NCBI GenBank assembly: GCA_001768125.1 | Contig: MENB01000129.1 | Location: 5,668 to 11,494 of the forward strand | Length of the DNA: 5,827 bases | Source: Armatimonadetes bacterium RBG_19FT_COMBO_69_19 | GTDB taxonomy: Bacteria > Sysuimicrobiota > Sysuimicrobiia > Sysuimicrobiales > Kaftiobacteriaceae | Reading direction: 5' to 3' | Shown here: positions 1-5,827 of the stretch, piece by piece | Position numbering within the stretch: position 1 is the stretch's first letter | How the letters are laid out: each line of letters starts with the position of its first letter | Position numbers and translations under genes: made by a program | The notes under the pieces: model-generated | Seen by the model: only the letters and a program-made list of their open reading frames with translations | Databases searched by the model: none | Told to the model about the DNA's origin: nothing

Positions 1-1115
1 CACGTGACGCGGCGGATGACGTGCACATCCGCCGCGGACTTACCTGCGCGTCCTGCCACGGCGGGAACCCGCGCGAGATGAGCTTGGGCGCGCACGACCG
101 ATCGGCCGGCTTCACGGGCGCCCCGAAGCCGGCGCAGGTGCCGCAGTTCTGCGCGCGCTGCCACAGCCGGCCCGAGGTGATGCGCCGCTACAACCCCAAG
201 CTCCCGTCGGATCAATTCGCCCGCTTCTTGACCAGCGTGCACGGCACGCGACTGGCGAAGGGCGACACCAAGGTGGCGACCTGCACGTCCTGCCACGGCG
301 TCCATCCCGTGCGCGCGGTCGCCGATTCCGCCTCGCCCGTGTACCCGACCAACGTGCCGCAGACCTGCGCGCGCTGCCACGCCGATCCGGATCGGATGAA
401 GAGTTACGGCATCCCCACGACGCAGTTCGAGGAATACAAGGGCAGCGTGCATGGCGAGGGCCTGTTGGCCCGCGGGAACCGACAGGCCCCCGCCTGCAAC
501 GACTGCCACGACAACCACGGGGCCGTCCCGCCGGGCGTGACGTCGGTGGCCAACGTGTGCGCGCAGTGCCACAGCGCGACGCGCGACCTGTTCGTGCGAA
601 GCCCCCACAAGGACGCGTTCGACATCCTGGGTGAGTCGGAGTGCACCACGTGCCACGGTACGCACAACATCGCGTTCCCCAGCGACGAGATGATCGGCAC
701 GGGCAGCGCCTCCGTCTGCGTGCGCTGCCATCCCGCGGACAGCGGTGGCGGACAGGCCGCCGCGCAAATCCGGGGCCAGCTGGAGCGCGTCAAATCCATC
801 ATTGCGCAGGCCGACGCGCTCCTGGCCCGCGCGTCGACCGCCGGCATGGACGTGACGGACGCGAACCTCGACCTGAATGAGGCGCGCACGCAGCTGATCC
901 TCTCACGGGCGGTCACCCACGCGGCCAGCCCTGCCGAGATCGAGAAGACCGCCGGCGCCGGCGTGGCCGCGGCGCTGCGGGCGAAGGCGTTCGGTGACGC
1001 CGCGATGGCGGAGTTGCGGTTCAGATGGCGCGGACTCGTCGTCTCGATCGGAGTGATCATGTTCGTCGCCGTGGCGCTCTGGCTCAAGATCCGTGAACTC
1101 GAATCGCGCAGATAG
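1..1115 (+). CDS. Octaheme c-type cytochrome with C-terminal membrane anchor (5' end outside window)
   Basis: The reading frame is open from base 3, and the first possible start (GTG at 21) sits only eight residues before a heme motif with no signal peptide, so the true start is probably upstream. Numbered from that GTG, eight CxxCH heme-binding motifs begin at residues 9, 44, 88, 116, 159, 180, 208 and 233. The heme region also holds eight other histidines (2, 25, 74, 95, 144, 166, 196, 215), enough for bis-His ligation of every heme. Residues about 245-330 are Ala/Leu/Glu-rich and probably helical. Residues 338-355 form one transmembrane helix followed by a short charged tail, which should place the heme domain outside the cytoplasmic membrane. 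It belongs to the broad cytochrome c3/doubled-CXXCH type. The likely role is electron transfer in the periplasm, probably with the three-heme cytochrome that starts 36 nt downstream. Substrate and redox partner cannot be told from sequence. Confidence 0.9.
   Translation, partial: RDAADDVHIRRGLTCASCHGGNPREMSLGAHDRSAGFTGAPKPAQVPQFCARCHSRPEVMRRYNPKLPSDQFARFLTSVHGTRLAKGDTKVATCTSCHGVHPVRAVADSASPVYPTNVPQTCARCHADPDRMKSYGIPTTQFEEYKGSVHGEGLLARGNRQAPACNDCHDNHGAVPPGVTSVANVCAQCHSATRDLFVRSPHKDAFDILGESECTTCHGTHNIAFPSDEMIGTGSASVCVRCHPADSGGGQAAAQIRGQLERVKSIIAQADALLARASTAGMDVTDANLDLNEARTQLILSRAVTHAASPAEIEKTAGAGVAAALRAKAFGDAAMAELRFRWRGLVVSIGVIMFVAVALWLKIRELESRR
138..731 (+). repeat. Internal module duplication in the octaheme cytochrome
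   Basis: Residues 40-111 and 112-175 (numbered from the GTG at 21) share the pattern VPQxCARCH, an acidic/Pro segment, QF, SVHG, then CxxCH and a further His. A more divergent third copy spans residues 176-237. The first two copies are offset by 72 residues (216 bp). Bases 138-164 and 354-380 differ at only two of 27 positions. Each module carries two hemes and two extra histidines. Confidence 0.75.
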
Positions 1116-1151
1116 ACGTACACTACGGTAGGGGCAGAAAGGAGCAGACGG

Positions 1152-1526
1152 ATGAAGGCGGTCGCATGGATCGTGGCAGGACTCGTCGTGCTCGGGTTCA
1201 TGGTGGTGCTCATCGGGACCGAGCGTACTACCGCGGGTCCCGCCGTGCAGGGTTGTCCGGCGTGTCACGGCGTGGCCGGCAAGCAGCCGGCGCTCGACGC
1301 GGCGGCGAAAGCGATCAAGGGGCATCCCGCCTCGGCGGCCAAGACGGTGCAGCAGTGCGCCTTGTGCCACACCAAGGGACCCACGCCCGCGCCGTTCCGC
1401 ACGGGGATGCACAAGATCCACCTGAATAGCGCGAAGTTCACGGCCGCGAAGGGGACGTGCACCTCGTGCCACAGCGTGGACAAGGCGACGGGGACCGTCA
1501 CGGTCTTCGGGCTCGAGCGGAAGTAG
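1152..1526 (+). CDS. Small three-heme c-type cytochrome, N-terminally anchored
   Basis: This 124-residue protein starts at ATG 1152 behind an AAAGGAG-type ribosome site at about 1138-1144. Residues 5-22 are strongly hydrophobic and act as an uncleaved anchor or signal peptide. Three heme motifs follow at residues 35-39 (CPACH), 69-73 (CALCH) and 103-107 (CTSCH). Outside the motifs there are exactly three histidines (58, 87, 90), which fits three bis-His, low-potential hemes. It is encoded 36 nt after the octaheme cytochrome on the same strand, so the two are probably co-transcribed and exchange electrons at the outer face of the cytoplasmic membrane. No enzymatic active site is visible. It resembles small cytochrome c7/c3-type carriers in size and motif density, but I do not recognise a named family. 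Confidence 0.88.
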   Translation: MKAVAWIVAGLVVLGFMVVLIGTERTTAGPAVQGCPACHGVAGKQPALDAAAKAIKGHPASAAKTVQQCALCHTKGPTPAPFRTGMHKIHLNSAKFTAAKGTCTSCHSVDKATGTVTVFGLERK

Positions 1527-2455: not shown

Positions 2456-2464
2456 ATGGACAGC

Positions 2465-3184
2465 ATGCAGAAAGGATACGTCTATATCGGGATCGGTATC
2501 CTCGCGCTCGCCACAGCGCTGGCGCTGCCGGTGATCGCGCAGCCCCGCATCGGGGGCCCGGGCGGCGGATGGGGGCCGGGTGGAATGCACGGCGGCGGCA
2601 TGACGGGCGGCGCATGGATGGGTGGCCCGCGCGTGGGGCAGGCCGTGACGCCTGTCACGACGATCGACGGCGCGGCTTCGCGCGCGCGCGAGGCCCTCGC
2701 GGGGTACCCTGGTGACTTGGCCGTCGCGGAAGTGATGGAGTTCAGCAACCACTACTATGTGCTGGTCAAGGAGAAGAGCACGGGGCGCGGTGCGCTCGAG
2801 CTCATCGTCGAGCGGAACGGGTTCGTGCACCCCGAGCCCGGGCCCAACATGATGTGGAACACGAAATACGGCCACATGGCCGGCGCCGGCTGGATGGGCG
2901 GCGGCATGATGGGTGGCGGCATGATGGGGGGTCCCACCACCCAGCCGGTGACCCCGCAGGCCCAGCCGATCACGCCGGATCGCGCGCAACAGCTCGCTGC
3001 GCAGTATCTGGCGCAGGCGTTCCCCGGGTCGACCCTCGAGCCCGGCATCGCCTTCTACGGCTACTTCACCTTCGACTTCGAGCGCGGCGGCAAGATCGCC
3101 GGGATGCTGAGCGTGAACGCGTCCACCGGTCAGGTATGGTTCCACACCTGGCACGGCGCGTTCGTGGCTGAGAGAGAGTTCTAG
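2465..3184 (+). CDS. Secreted protein with two PepSY-like halves and Gly/Met-rich linkers
   Basis: From ATG 2465 the protein has 239 residues. Residues 1-25 are a signal peptide (Lys3, hydrophobic core, VIA before Gln26). Residues 30-56 and 138-157 are Gly/Met/Trp/His-rich linkers. Residues about 65-135 form a PepSY-like half ending in PGPNMMWNTKYG. Residues 169-239 form a second half with a helix, FYGYFTF, a GKIAGMLSVN strand pair and GQVWFHTWHG. Similar two-half proteins occur in other bacteria as uncharacterised PepSY-domain proteins; I know of no defined function. Exposed Met and His could bind soft metals such as Cu(I) or Ag(I), but this is inference. It is the first gene of the operon, directly behind the 11-bp repeats, and 11 nt ahead of the SHOCT gene, so it is probably a main target of the encoded two-component system. 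Confidence 0.8.
   Translation: MQKGYVYIGIGILALATALALPVIAQPRIGGPGGGWGPGGMHGGGMTGGAWMGGPRVGQAVTPVTTIDGAASRAREALAGYPGDLAVAEVMEFSNHYYVLVKEKSTGRGALELIVERNGFVHPEPGPNMMWNTKYGHMAGAGWMGGGMMGGGMMGGPTTQPVTPQAQPITPDRAQQLAAQYLAQAFPGSTLEPGIAFYGYFTFDFERGGKIAGMLSVNASTGQVWFHTWHGAFVAEREF
2891..2935 (+). repeat. Three tandem 15-bp units encoding (W/M)MGG(G/P)
   Basis: Units at 2891-2905, 2906-2920 and 2921-2935 encode WMGGG, MMGGG and MMGGP in the second Gly/Met-rich linker. The third unit is partly diverged. The number of units could vary by replication slippage without breaking the frame. Confidence 0.65.
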
Positions 3185-3195
3185 GAGGCACATAG

Positions 3196-3540
3196 ATGAG
3201 CTCACGAGATCTGTCGATCGTCTTGCTGGTGGTGCTCGGCGTGGTCGTCCTGCTCCCCGTGCTGGGGATGTCACTCGGGGTGGGCGGGATGGGTGGGATG
3301 ATGGGCCCCGGACACATGGGCCGGGGCATGATGGGCGGCTGGTACGGCGGCGGGTCCGGTTGGGGCTGGGGAGGACTCCTGTTCCTCGTGCTCGTGATCG
3401 CCGGCGTCGTGCTGATCACCCGCGGCCTGGTGGACAAGGCCGGACGCGCTGATGAGGCGCTGGCGATCCTCCGGCAGCGGCTGGCGCGCGGCGAGATCAC
3501 GACGGAGCAGTACGAGGAGCTGAAGCGCGCCCTCGGGTAG
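3196..3540 (+). CDS. Two-TM Gly/Met-rich membrane protein with C-terminal SHOCT domain
   Basis: This 114-residue protein starts at ATG 3196, 7 nt after AGGAGG (3183-3188), a ribosome site that begins within the previous stop codon. Transmembrane helix 1 covers residues 7-27. Residues 30-58 are a Gly/Met/Trp-rich segment with MM pairs at 35-36 and 45-46 and one His (40). Helix 2 covers 59-76. Residues 86-113 match the SHOCT pattern (short C-terminal domain): ILRQRLARGEIT, then EEYxxLK-like YEELKRAL. The SHOCT tail should lie on the same side of the membrane as the N-terminus. SHOCT domains are common at the ends of small membrane proteins and their role is unclear. The Met-rich segment resembles that of the preceding secreted protein, so the two may act together at the envelope. 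Confidence 0.85.
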   Translation: MSSRDLSIVLLVVLGVVVLLPVLGMSLGVGGMGGMMGPGHMGRGMMGGWYGGGSGWGWGGLLFLVLVIAGVVLITRGLVDKAGRADEALAILRQRLARGEITTEQYEELKRALG

Positions 3541-3542
3541 AG

Positions 3543-4238
3543 ATGTCCAAACGGACGGTGCTGATCGTCGAGGATGAGCCGGGGATCGCGGACGTCGTCC
3601 GCCAGTACCTGGAGAAGGACGGCTACCGCGTCGAGGTGAGCGGCGACGGGGCTCGGGCCGTGGACGAGTTCGCGCGTCTGCGGCCCGATCTCGTGCTGCT
3701 GGATCTCATGCTGCCAGGGCTGGACGGTTTTGAGGTCTGCCGGCGCATCCGCGGCCAGGGGTCAACACCAGTGATCATGCTCACCGCGCGTGACGAGGAG
3801 ACCGACAAGCTCGTCGGGTTGGAGCTTGGCGCCGACGACTATATCACGAAGCCGTTCAGCCCCCGCGAAGTGGTCGCGCGCGTCCGCGCGGTCCTTCGCC
3901 GCGCGCAGGCGGGACCGGCGCCGGGTGACCGTGTCCACGTACACGATCTGGAGATCGACCCCGCCCGCTTCGAGGCGACCCGCGCGGGCATCCCGCTCGA
4001 TCTCACACCGACGGAGTTCAGGCTGCTCACGGCGCTGGCGCGCAGTCCCGGACGGGCGTTCACGCGACTGCAGCTCATCGATCAGGTGCAGGGATACGCG
4101 TTCGAGGGCTATGAGCGCACCGTGGACGCGCACGTGAAGAACCTCCGGCAGAAGCTCGAACCCGATCCGCGGCATCCGCGCTACATCGTCACCGTGCACG
4201 GCGTGGGCTACCGGCTCGCGGAGGCCCTTGATGACTAG
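3543..4238 (+). CDS. OmpR/PhoB-family response regulator
   Basis: This 231-residue protein has a receiver domain at residues 1-120 with the full active site: acidic pair Glu10/Asp11, phospho-acceptor Asp54 (in LVLLDLMLPGLDG), Thr81 and Lys103 (in KPF). Residues about 129-229 form a winged-helix DNA-binding domain with the LTPTEFRLL motif and a recognition helix near 191-205 (RTVDAHVKNLRQKL). The start codon is 2 nt after the preceding stop with only a weak ribosome site, so translation is probably coupled. The kinase gene overlaps its 3' end by 8 bp, as expected for a cognate pair. Regulators of this class bind 11-bp direct repeats, as found at 2356-2399, so control of its own operon is likely. 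The stimulus is not shown by the sequence. Confidence 0.96.
   Translation: MSKRTVLIVEDEPGIADVVRQYLEKDGYRVEVSGDGARAVDEFARLRPDLVLLDLMLPGLDGFEVCRRIRGQGSTPVIMLTARDEETDKLVGLELGADDYITKPFSPREVVARVRAVLRRAQAGPAPGDRVHVHDLEIDPARFEATRAGIPLDLTPTEFRLLTALARSPGRAFTRLQLIDQVQGYAFEGYERTVDAHVKNLRQKLEPDPRHPRYIVTVHGVGYRLAEALDD
4218..4224 (+). promoter_or_regulatory. Ribosome-binding site for the histidine kinase
   Basis: GCGGAGG lies inside the response regulator gene and ends 6 nt before ATG 4231. This favours ATG over the TTG at 4228. Confidence 0.6.
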
Positions 4239-5322
4239 CGTGCGCGGGCGGTTGGTGCTGGTCCTGGTCCTCGTGGCCTGGCTTTCCGTCGCGGTCGTGG
4301 GCGTGGTCACCGACCGTCTCGCCCAGGCACGCGTCGCCACCTTCCTCCGCCATGCGAGGGCGATGCCCGGGATGAACACGATGATGCGGGAGATGATGCC
4401 TTCGCCCGAAGCGCGTCTGCTCGGCGACGTCCGGCGGGCGATCTGGGTGGCGGCGGTGATCGGGCTGGGCGTCGCTGCGGTGGCGGGGACCGCGACCGCC
4501 CGAACGATCACCGCCCCGCTCCAGGCCTTTGCCGTCGCCGCGAAGCGCGTGGGGCAGGGTGACCTGCGGCACGACGTACCGGTGGCGGGCGGCGACGAGC
4601 TGGCCGGTGTGGCGCGCGCATTCAACGCCATGGCAGCGGACCTGCGGCACACGGAGGAGACGCGCCGGCAGCTTCTGGCGGACATCGCGCACGAACTCGG
4701 CACGCCCCTCTCGGTGCTGCAGGCCAACGTCGAGGGTATGCTCGACGGCGTGGTCGAGGCCACGCCGGAGCGTCTGGCCTCGCTGCACATGCAGACGCAG
4801 GTCCTCACCCGGCTGGTGCGAGACTTGCGTGACCTCTCGCTGGCTCAGCAGGGCCAGCTCCATCTCGATCGGCGACCGGCGAATCTCGGCGGACTGGTCC
4901 GGGAGGTAGCTGACGTGGCCCGCCCGCTGGCCGAGGAGAAGGGGGTCGCGCTGGACGTAGCCGCGCAGGCCCTGAGCGTTCCCGCGGACCGCGATCGGAT
5001 CGTCCAGGTCCTGCACAATCTGCTGGGCAACGCGATCCGCTACACGGAGCGCGGCGGCGTGGTGCGGCTGGCGGCGCGGGCCGTGGATGGCGAGGTTCAG
5101 GTGGAGGTGTCGGACACGGGTCCCGGCATCCCCCCTGAAGAGTTGCCCCACATCTTCGACCGGTTCCACCGCGTTGACCGTTCGCGATCGCGCGCGACGG
5201 GCGGGGCCGGCCTCGGACTTGCTATCGTCAAGCATCTCGTGGAAGCGCACGGGGGGCGCGTCTGGGCGCGCAGCGAGCTCGGCGCAGGCACGACCGTCGG
5301 TTTCGCGCTCCCCGCGTCGTAG
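4231..5322 (+). CDS. Membrane sensor histidine kinase with short Met-rich sensor loop
   Basis: This 363-residue kinase has TM helix 1 at residues 8-27, a short extracytoplasmic loop at 28-69, TM helix 2 at 70-90, a HAMP linker to about 142, the dimerisation/phospho-acceptor helix with His154, and a complete ATPase domain. In that domain the N-box is Asn263 to Asn267, the G1 box is Asp295-Gly299 (DTGPG), the F-box is IFDRF (308-312) and the G2 box is GAGLGL (325-330). The H-box reads HELGTPL, with Gly157 in place of the usual Arg. The loop has six Met in 12 residues (45, 48, 51, 52, 55, 56), which could detect a soft metal such as copper or silver, or Met oxidation; this is inference. It overlaps the response regulator gene by 8 bp and should phosphorylate Asp54 of that protein. 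A TTG at 4228 is a less likely start. Confidence 0.95.
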   Translation: MTSVRGRLVLVLVLVAWLSVAVVGVVTDRLAQARVATFLRHARAMPGMNTMMREMMPSPEARLLGDVRRAIWVAAVIGLGVAAVAGTATARTITAPLQAFAVAAKRVGQGDLRHDVPVAGGDELAGVARAFNAMAADLRHTEETRRQLLADIAHELGTPLSVLQANVEGMLDGVVEATPERLASLHMQTQVLTRLVRDLRDLSLAQQGQLHLDRRPANLGGLVREVADVARPLAEEKGVALDVAAQALSVPADRDRIVQVLHNLLGNAIRYTERGGVVRLAARAVDGEVQVEVSDTGPGIPPEELPHIFDRFHRVDRSRSRATGGAGLGLAIVKHLVEAHGGRVWARSELGAGTTVGFALPAS

Positions 5323-5335
5323 GGAGGAGAGGGAG

Positions 5336-5773
5336 ATGGGATCCACACATGCACGACGTCCGTGGTACCGGGGCTATGCCGGCTGGCTTCTCGCCGCCGG
5401 CCTGGTCGCCGCCGCGGTCGTGGCGTTCGTAGCCTGGCCCCGCGGCCCCGTCTACGCGGACTATGTGGAGGGCGGCCGGCCGACGGTCGTCTTCGTCTGG
5501 TCGGATCCGACGCCCCATCATCCGCATGGCTGAGGGGCGTGCGACGTGATGAAGCCCGTGATGGCTTCACTCAAAGCACGGTACGGAGAGCAGATCACCT
5601 GGCACTACCATGAGTTCAATCAACCGGACGCGGCGAAGGTGAACGCGATTTTCGAGATCAAGGCGCACCCGGAGATCTTCATCCTGGATCGGGACGGGCG
5701 CATGGTGCGAAAGTTCATCGGCGTGACCTCGATGTATGAGCTCGAAACCACGCTGCGTCCGCTGCTGCGCTGA
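5336..5773 (+). CDS. Membrane-anchored thioredoxin-like selenoprotein (in-frame TGA read as Sec66)
   Basis: Read through one TGA (5531-5533), the frame encodes 145 residues. Residues 1-14 are basic, 15-34 form one membrane anchor, and 49-145 form a thioredoxin fold facing outward. PTVVFVWS (49-56) is the first core strand, followed by a His-rich loop, the active site Sec66-Gly-Ala-Cys69, and DVMKPV. Pro74 is five residues after Cys69, matching Pro40 after Cys35 in thioredoxin. AHPEIFILDRDGR (110-122) supplies the cis-Pro (112) and the next strands, and KFIG follows. The TGA thus replaces exactly the nucleophilic Cys of CxxC. Both sides stay in frame and each alone lacks half the fold. A SECIS-like hairpin follows. 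GGAGG (5323-5327) is 8 nt before ATG 5336, and the kinase stop is 13 nt upstream. The likely role is thiol-disulfide or peroxide/methionine-sulfoxide reduction in the envelope. A pseudogene with a Cys-to-stop mutation is the main alternative. Standard gene callers would split it into 5336-5533 and about 5546-5773. Confidence 0.85.
5538..5580 (+). promoter_or_regulatory. Candidate bacterial SECIS element for Sec insertion
   Basis: The upper stem is 7 bp (5550-5556 with 5563-5569) closing the 6-nt loop CGUGAU at 5557-5562. A lower helix CGUGC (5538-5542) pairs with GCACG (5576-5580) across an internal loop. The apical loop starts 23 nt after the TGA and has G as its second base with a GU step. 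As I recall the consensus, bacterial SECIS hairpins lie inside the coding region, roughly 16-37 nt downstream of the UGA, with a G in the first two loop bases, so SelB could place Sec-tRNA here. The loop is not identical to E. coli GGUC, which is normal between phyla. Confidence 0.65.
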
Positions 5774-5786
5774 CGGAGGGACGATG

Positions 5787-5827
5787 ATGCGTGTGGTGAT
5801 CGTGGCGGTTCTGATCGGCGCGGCGGT
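5787..5827 (+). CDS. Start of an exported or membrane protein (3' end outside window)
   Basis: GGAGGG at 5775-5780 precedes two in-frame ATGs, at 5784 and 5787. The second has the better 6-nt spacing. The visible residues (MRVVIVAVLIGAA) look like the start of a signal peptide or membrane helix. The gene begins 13 nt after the stop of the selenoprotein and probably shares its operon. Nothing more can be said from 41 bases. Confidence 0.6.
   Translation, partial: MRVVIVAVLIGAA

What the first reader, a model, noticed from the sequence alone, without database searches (positions are those of the whole stretch)
5336..5773. Unannotated thioredoxin-like selenoprotein with a U-G-A-C active site
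A TGA falls exactly at the first Cys position of a thioredoxin CxxC motif. The resolving Cys69, Lys-Pro at 73-74 and cis-Pro112 are intact downstream in the same frame, and the membrane anchor and first beta-strand are intact upstream. A chance nonsense mutation would rarely hit this one residue and leave both sides conserved and in frame. The gene would normally be split or truncated by annotation, so the family may be missed in databases. An outward-facing Sec thioredoxin inside a two-component operon is unusual.
Basis: partly seen in the sequence, partly recalled or inferred. Interest (0 to 1): 0.93.

Follow-up and report, generated by a model that had tools for sequence, protein, structure and literature searches.

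The report
Unannotated selenocysteine thioredoxin family
A gene that databases list as two separate scraps is read here as one small protein, predicted to be a membrane-anchored thioredoxin, whose in-frame stop codon TGA at the active site likely encodes the rare amino acid selenocysteine; dozens of database relatives break off at exactly the same position, and no cysteine version was found in the searches made.

Summary
The window gene (5336-5773) has an in-frame TGA at codon 66, the nucleophile position of a thioredoxin-type UxxC site. A homolog only 49% identical, in another family of the same order, has TGA at the same place. Among 5.8 billion database proteins, 43 of 43 upstream halves end exactly there and 51 downstream halves are separate short ORFs; their stop codons were not seen, because only two genes could be read as DNA. 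A full-length search with Cys at position 66 found no Cys form. The window's genome holds tRNA-Sec, SelB and SelA on one contig and a SelD fragment at a contig end. The model is a thioredoxin fold behind one N-terminal helix. A SECIS-like hairpin follows both TGAs, but 18% of background TGA triplets pass the same rule. I read it as an unannotated, apparently Sec-only family of extracytoplasmic UxxC thioredoxins. Partners and substrate are inferred: a CcdA-like protein and a cupredoxin lie downstream, but a same-genus genome has that gene run without the Sec gene. Sec insertion itself is not shown.

The parts
5336..5773 (+). Sec-thioredoxin gene (145 residues with U66), ending in TGA
5369..5434 (+). 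predicted N-terminal membrane helix (residues 12-33); positively charged N-terminus, so the catalytic domain is predicted to lie outside the cytoplasm
   Evidence: AlphaFold2 helix 12-33; N-side net charge exceeds C-side in all 40 N-halves that the script could measure, of 43, mean +5.45 against +0.7
5531..5533 (+). TGA codon 66, predicted selenocysteine (nucleophile of UGAC)
5540..5542 (+). TGC, resolving Cys69
   Evidence: Cys in the same place in G012 and, by eye, in P0017
5547..5573 (+). SECIS-like hairpin (10 bp with one bulge, loop CGUGAU at 5557-5562, 23 nt after the TGA)
   Evidence: identical loop and spacing in G012; weak on its own
4231..5322 (+). sensor histidine kinase (HAMP, HisKA, HATPase_c) with a Met-rich outer segment (Met-rich by eye)
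   Evidence: start chosen at the ATG, the ORF listing gives TTG 4228
3543..4238 (+). response regulator (Response_reg + Trans_reg_C)
3196..3540 (+). Met/Gly-rich protein with SHOCT domain
2456..3184 (+). Met/Gly-rich protein with a signal-like N-terminus (by eye), no Pfam family at E 0.001
5784..5827 (+). start of the next gene (VEIEV-type small protein), which runs on outside the window; followed outside by a membrane protein, a cupredoxin and a CcdA-like protein

Best explanation
The window holds one gene, split by annotation, for a protein predicted to have a thioredoxin fold behind a single membrane helix, in which an in-frame TGA likely encodes selenocysteine as the attacking residue of a UxxC active site that would reduce disulfides outside the cytoplasm. 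Steps shown: the frame and its TGA; TGA at the same place in a 49%-identical homolog; a protein end at the same column in 41 other database clusters; the Sec machinery in the same genome; a confident thioredoxin-fold model. Steps inferred: (1) SelB with tRNA-Sec reads the UGA, aided by the hairpin 23 nt downstream. (2) The N-terminus stays inside, so the domain faces outward. (3) U66 attacks a substrate disulfide and C69 resolves the selenylsulfide. (4) The protein is re-reduced by a membrane electron carrier, most plausibly the CcdA-like protein encoded by the fourth gene downstream. (5) The likely substrates are thiol ligands of exported metal (copper) or haem proteins, because a cupredoxin, Met-rich proteins and CXXCH cytochromes are encoded around it.
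For: TGA shared by two genes with 49% identical products. 43 of 43 N-half proteins end exactly at the U position, and 51 of 51 C-halves begin after it. NCBI lists the G012 gene as two hypothetical proteins, HY660_13415 and HY660_13410. Own genome: tRNA-Sec 83.8 bits (gathering 47), also called by ARAGORN with anticodon TCA; SelB 321 bits (cut-off 242); SelA 546 bits (cut-off 268), all on contig C19. SelD fragment at the edge of contig C58, and a TGA inside SelD in the 3 other genomes asked. AlphaFold2 pLDDT 84.8; best PDB matches are thioredoxins, E 1.4e-7. Behind the TGA, 7 codons ATG AAG CCC GTG ATG GCT TCA are identical in both genes although GCT and TCA are rare (25 of 418 Ala and 12 of 136 Ser codons in 14 genes of G000), as expected if the RNA hairpin is constrained.
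Against: No expression or mass data. The stop codon was seen as TGA in two genes only. In G012 (72% complete, 620 contigs) selA, selB and tRNA-Sec were not found over cut-off; only a TGA-bearing SelD piece was. The hairpin rule is passed by 264 of 1461 background TGA triplets, and the fold z-scores are modest: -1.91 and -0.83 for the window, -1.60 and -1.00 for G012. The shared codons may in part be common descent: 16 of 31 identical residues before the TGA and 24 of 38 after it (hairpin included) share the codon. The CcdA-like reading is weak: DsbD_TM in 2 of 13 homologs, SfLAP in 6, ArsG in 11 (the window genome's copy 14.3 bits against a cut-off of 200), PDB CcdA at E = 1, and no Pfam match for the window genome's own copy. 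Genome G017 of the same genus keeps the whole run without the Sec gene, so the neighbours do not need it. The copper link rests on neighbours only.
Confidence: 0.8

Rival explanations
1. Two separate proteins: a 65-residue membrane peptide ending at TGA and a 75-residue protein starting at the GTG/ATG just behind it, kept as a pair.
For: The databases hold both halves as separate predicted proteins. In the window GAGGGG lies 8 nt before the internal GTG at 5546 and could act as a ribosome site (sequence).
Against: The GAGGGG is absent in G012, where TGA CCA GCC TGC GAC ATC ATG is read. The cut falls at the catalytic residue inside a thioredoxin fold, and the codons between TGA and the putative start still encode the resolving Cys in both genes. 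The genome has Sec machinery.
Confidence: 0.07
2. A pseudogene or a sequencing error at a Cys codon.
For: The window comes from a draft genome of 190 contigs, 80.8% complete.
Against: 41 other clusters end at the identical column, and both sides are conserved in 51 and 43 database proteins.
Confidence: 0.01
3. TGA is reassigned or read through as another amino acid (for example Trp) rather than Sec.
For: An open frame under TGA=U is no evidence for Sec in itself.
Against: TGA serves as the end of 4 of the 12 genes checked, this one included. The position aligns with the first catalytic Cys of thioredoxins. SelA, SelB and tRNA-Sec are present.
Confidence: 0.02
4. A true selenoprotein, but its partner and role differ: for example a general outer-surface disulfide reductase or peroxide defence, unrelated to copper or to the CcdA-like protein. 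(This overlaps with the best explanation except for its steps 4 and 5.)
For: G012's copy lies in a different neighbourhood; the G017 operon lacks the gene. Known UxxC proteins are mostly of unproven redox role (PMC13188914, sections 7-9 read).
Against: Two database proteins, P0002 and P0003, carry a half of the Sec-thioredoxin in one chain with a VEIEV-type stretch like the window's next gene (59% over 112 and 47% over 108 residues), so that neighbourhood recurs. P0003 comes from a 728-base contig and may be a chimera.
Confidence: 0.4

Closest known systems
Selenocysteine thioredoxin (UxxC; row 'Thioredoxin (Trx)', PF00085, in Table 1 of PMC13188914)
   Same: Thioredoxin fold, Sec at the first active-site position, Cys at the second, cis-Pro.
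   Different: One N-terminal membrane helix; extra residues with a His-His-Pro stretch before the Sec; Pfam thioredoxin score at the threshold (23.2 and 23.8 against 23.5); TIGR01068 25.6 against 96.8. No Cys relatives found in the searches made.
TsoX, HSGNPxU motif selenoprotein (NF045809)
   Same: His and Pro just before a U in a UxxC motif; weak profile match (E 0.044 and 0.01).
   Different: 14 and 16 bits against a cut-off of 52; not a member.
Thiol:disulfide interchange selenoprotein (PF13098) and TlpA/DsbG/DsbA-like Sec proteins (Table 1, PMC13188914)
   Same: UxxC in a thioredoxin fold; extracytoplasmic roles are known for such families (recalled). Some C-halves carry precomputed PF13098.
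   Different: PF13098 is 20.8 bits for the G012 protein against a cut-off of 27, and does not match the window protein at E 0.001.
HUIPC motif thioredoxin-like selenoprotein (NF047660)
   Same: By its name: His before U, UxxC, thioredoxin-like.
   Different: No match to the window or G012 protein at E 0.1.

Membership tests
Bacterial selenoproteins | in-frame TGA aligned with a catalytic Cys or Sec position and conserved in homologs | tested here: met
   TGA in both genes seen as DNA; 43 of 43 N-halves end there (codon not seen for 41); the position aligns with the first Cys of thioredoxins
Bacterial selenoproteins | SelA, SelB, tRNA-Sec and SelD in the genome | tested here: met
   SelA, SelB, tRNA-Sec over cut-offs on one contig; SelD only a fragment of 117.7 bits (cut-off 125) at a contig end. 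In G012 not found, apart from a SelD piece
Bacterial selenoproteins | bSECIS: loop of 3-9 nt, stem of 4-16 bp, G in the first two loop positions, 16-37 nt from UGA, energy at most -7.5 (PMC13188914, Fig. 2 legend) | tested here: inconclusive
   met in the window and in G012 (loop CGUGAU, 23 nt, -10.9 kcal/mol), but 264 of 1461 TGA triplets also pass
Bacterial selenoproteins | Sec present in the protein | not testable with these tools
   needs 75Se labelling or mass spectrometry
Thioredoxin family (PF00085) | thioredoxin fold with active site at the start of helix 1 and a Pro before strand 3 (cis-Pro position) | tested here: met
   (helix 67-86 right after U66, strand 113-117 after P112; that the Pro is cis was not measured); thioredoxins on top
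Thioredoxin family (PF00085) | Pfam gathering score 23.5 | tested here: inconclusive
   window 23.2, G012 23.8
Thioredoxin equivalog TIGR01068 | score over 96.8 | tested here: not met
   25.6 and 22.3 bits
TsoX (NF045809) | score over 52 | tested here: not met
   14 and 16 bits
HUIPC thioredoxin-like selenoprotein (NF047660) | profile match | tested here: not met
   no match at E 0.1
CcdA/DsbD electron carriers (for the neighbour gene) | profile match and two invariant membrane Cys | tested here: inconclusive
   C21 and C145 invariant in 13 of 13, but DsbD_TM matches only 2 of 13 and PDB CcdA only E = 1

The most novel reading that the evidence does not exclude
A selenoprotein family that exists only in the Sec form: an outward-facing, membrane-anchored HHPxG-U-x-A-C thioredoxin whose catalytic site needs selenium, perhaps because two conserved His next to the Sec form a copper-handling site fed with electrons by a CcdA-like carrier. 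It would have escaped searches that depend on Cys relatives.
Probability: 0.35. Interest if true: 0.78.

Novelty: new variant of a known kind. Interest (0 to 1): 0.66.

Why it matters
[quoted passage not shown] the same premise stands in a passage of PMC12013277). A family with dozens of likely Sec members and no Cys member found would be invisible to such searches, and its genes are stored in databases as pairs of meaningless fragments. It is also a test case for when selenium cannot be replaced by sulfur. The Sec gene is present in one genome and missing from the otherwise matching operon of a same-genus genome, which gives a natural comparison for its role.

Tried and rejected
Cys orthologs: the full-length search (candidate lengths about 80-255 aa, shared words needed; 186 candidates) gave 2 hits at E 0.001, neither a full-length Cys form. 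The 43 genomes of the phylum gave only the two TGA genes (the same 43 genomes twice). In genome contigs (GTDB r220) the scan found one relative, the G012 contig; one of its two patterns carried a C at the TGA position and so could not match TGA genes, the other could. Viral contigs gave none (one of the two patterns again began with that C). Plasmids gave 2 Streptomyces records at 26% identity over 71% of the query, one of them annotated trxA. The searches with half proteins could not have shown full-length Cys forms, because of their length limits. So 'Sec-only' rests mainly.

Rfam search of the window: nothing over gathering scores. A joint alignment of both kinds of halves misaligned and was dropped. 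The model used the two full products, P0002 and 44 of the 51 C-halves; left out were P0005, P0023, P0028, P0049, P0053, P0054, P0055 and all N-halves. The G012 codon table used automatically chosen long ORFs, some with low GC3 and probably false, so only the G000 rarities are relied on. A search for SECIS-like hairpins behind the TGA of relatives' SelD genes printed nothing and was not pursued. Papers: PMC13188914 abstract and sections 5, 7, 8, 9 read; passages only of PMC12013277 and PMC11604079; all others as search listings. The phylum name Sysuimicrobiota (CSP1-3) for the host is a guess from recall and was not established.

Full report
1. What is there. The gene at 5336-5773 starts 13 nt after the histidine kinase gene, behind a strong ribosome site. 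Read through one TGA at codon 66 it gives 145 residues: a charged N-terminus, one hydrophobic stretch, then VVFVWSDPTPHHPHG-U-GAC-DVMKPVMASLKARYG... and a Pro at the cis-Pro position. TGA is also a normal stop in this gene run, in 4 of 12 genes checked, this one included, so the code is not simply changed.

2. Is the TGA conserved? In the 43 genomes held for the phylum (all one order), the protein is found in 2: the window's genome and G012, 49% identical, with TGA at the same place and U-P-A-C in place of U-G-A-C. The full-length search of 5.8 billion proteins found only two partial proteins. P0003 ends at the U position; P0002 starts behind it; both also carry a VEIEV-type stretch like the window's next gene. 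Searching with each half separately found 51 C-halves and 43 N-halves. All 43 N-halves end exactly six residues after WS[DE]PT, that is, at the U position. Two of them are the window's and G012's own, so 41 are others. The databases show proteins, so the stop codon of those 41 was not seen. The residue before U is Gly in 42 of 43; of the two His, one is kept in 42 and the other in 40 of 43. MKPVMASL is intact in 48 of 51 C-halves. Sixteen N/C pairs list identical longest-contig lengths, one of them G012's. This is not the pattern of a nonsense mutation or a sequencing error.

3. Can the cell make Sec? In the window's genome, tRNA-Sec (83.8 bits; ARAGORN anticodon TCA), SelB (321 bits) and SelA (546 bits) lie side by side on contig C19. 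SelD is a fragment at the start of contig C58 (117.7 bits, cut-off 125); the three other genomes asked have SelD with a TGA inside. Against: G012 shows no selA, selB or tRNA-Sec over cut-off. That genome is 72% complete in 620 contigs and the three genes are neighbours in G000, so one lost contig could explain it; this is inference.

4. SECIS. The RNA after the TGA forms a hairpin around GAAGCC-CGUGAU-GGCUUC with a 6-nt loop, G in its second position, 23 nt from the UGA, in both genes (the same core). It meets the published model (PMC13188914, Fig. 2 legend), but 264 of 1461 background TGA triplets do too. Fold z-scores are modest: -1.91 (60 nt) and -0.83 (76 nt) for the window, -1.60 and -1.00 for G012. 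The better sign is codon choice: seven codons in a row are identical in the two genes, including GCT (25 of 418 Ala codons) and TCA (12 of 136 Ser codons) in 14 genes of a G+C-rich genome. For identical residues in general, 16 of 31 before the TGA and 24 of 38 after it, hairpin included, share the codon.

5. Structure and topology. AlphaFold2 on 47 sequences gives pLDDT 84.8: helix 12-33 (the membrane stretch), strand 50-55, helix 67-86 starting just after U66, then the rest of a thioredoxin fold. The 50 Foldseek matches listed from the PDB are thioredoxins, thioredoxin fusions or relatives, E 1.4e-7 at best. N-side charge exceeds C-side charge in all 40 N-halves that could be measured, of 43, so the domain is predicted to face outward.

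6. Neighbourhood. Upstream: Met-rich protein, SHOCT protein, response regulator, histidine kinase. Downstream outside the window: the VEIEV-type protein, a 161-residue membrane protein, a cupredoxin (PF13473, E 4e-14) and a 226-residue membrane protein with invariant Cys in its NPC-like and PC motifs. Genome G017 of the same genus has the same order of genes without the Sec gene: there the kinase stop is followed 12 nt later by the VEIEV gene. So the Sec gene was gained or lost as a single piece (inference). The CcdA-like protein matches in 12 of 43 genomes; of 5 others cut out around it, a cupredoxin gene adjoins in 4 (G017, G005, G004, G010) and none is seen in G012's piece. The CcdA assignment is weak.

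7. Mechanism. I commit to an outward-facing UxxC disulfide reductase. Shown: frame, TGA in two genes, the common break point of the family, machinery, modelled fold. Inferred: Sec insertion, topology, selenolate chemistry, recharging by the CcdA-like protein, and targets among exported copper or haem proteins.

8. Known or new? Table 1 of the 2026 review (119 families/subfamilies, seen) lists UxxC thioredoxins and several relatives, but none under this motif, and NCBIfam release 20.0 gave no family over cut-off for either protein. Paper searches showed no description; they cover open-licence papers only and were judged from listings. It is a new variant of a known kind. The Sec-only pattern is its most unusual feature and is limited by the searches described.

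Noticed in passing
window 5784-5827 and L015:11451-11918: A small protein (VEIEVT ... HHRSGVLIFP) with no Pfam or NCBIfam family at E 0.1 lies next to the Sec gene; relatives occur in G017, G005 and G004, and database proteins P0002 and P0003 carry such a stretch in one chain with a half of the Sec-thioredoxin.
   Followed up: partly
L015:12923-13603: A 226-residue membrane protein with invariant cysteines, CcdA/ArsG/SfLAP-like, lies next to a cupredoxin gene in this and 4 of 5 other genomes looked at.
   Followed up: partly
L040:6260-7129 (G017): A protein that looks like a VKOR-type membrane oxidase fused to a thioredoxin domain with CPHC lies near the Sec-free copy of the operon (read by eye, no profile run).
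   Followed up: no
window 3-1526: Two proteins with CXXCH haem motifs (Paired_CXXCH and cytochrome c3/c7 types; the second only a below-cut-off MtrC-like match) precede the operon.
   Followed up: no
L021, L022 and G012:C269:9458-9925: SelD genes with an in-frame TGA, that is, a likely Sec-type SelD, in three relatives.
   Followed up: no
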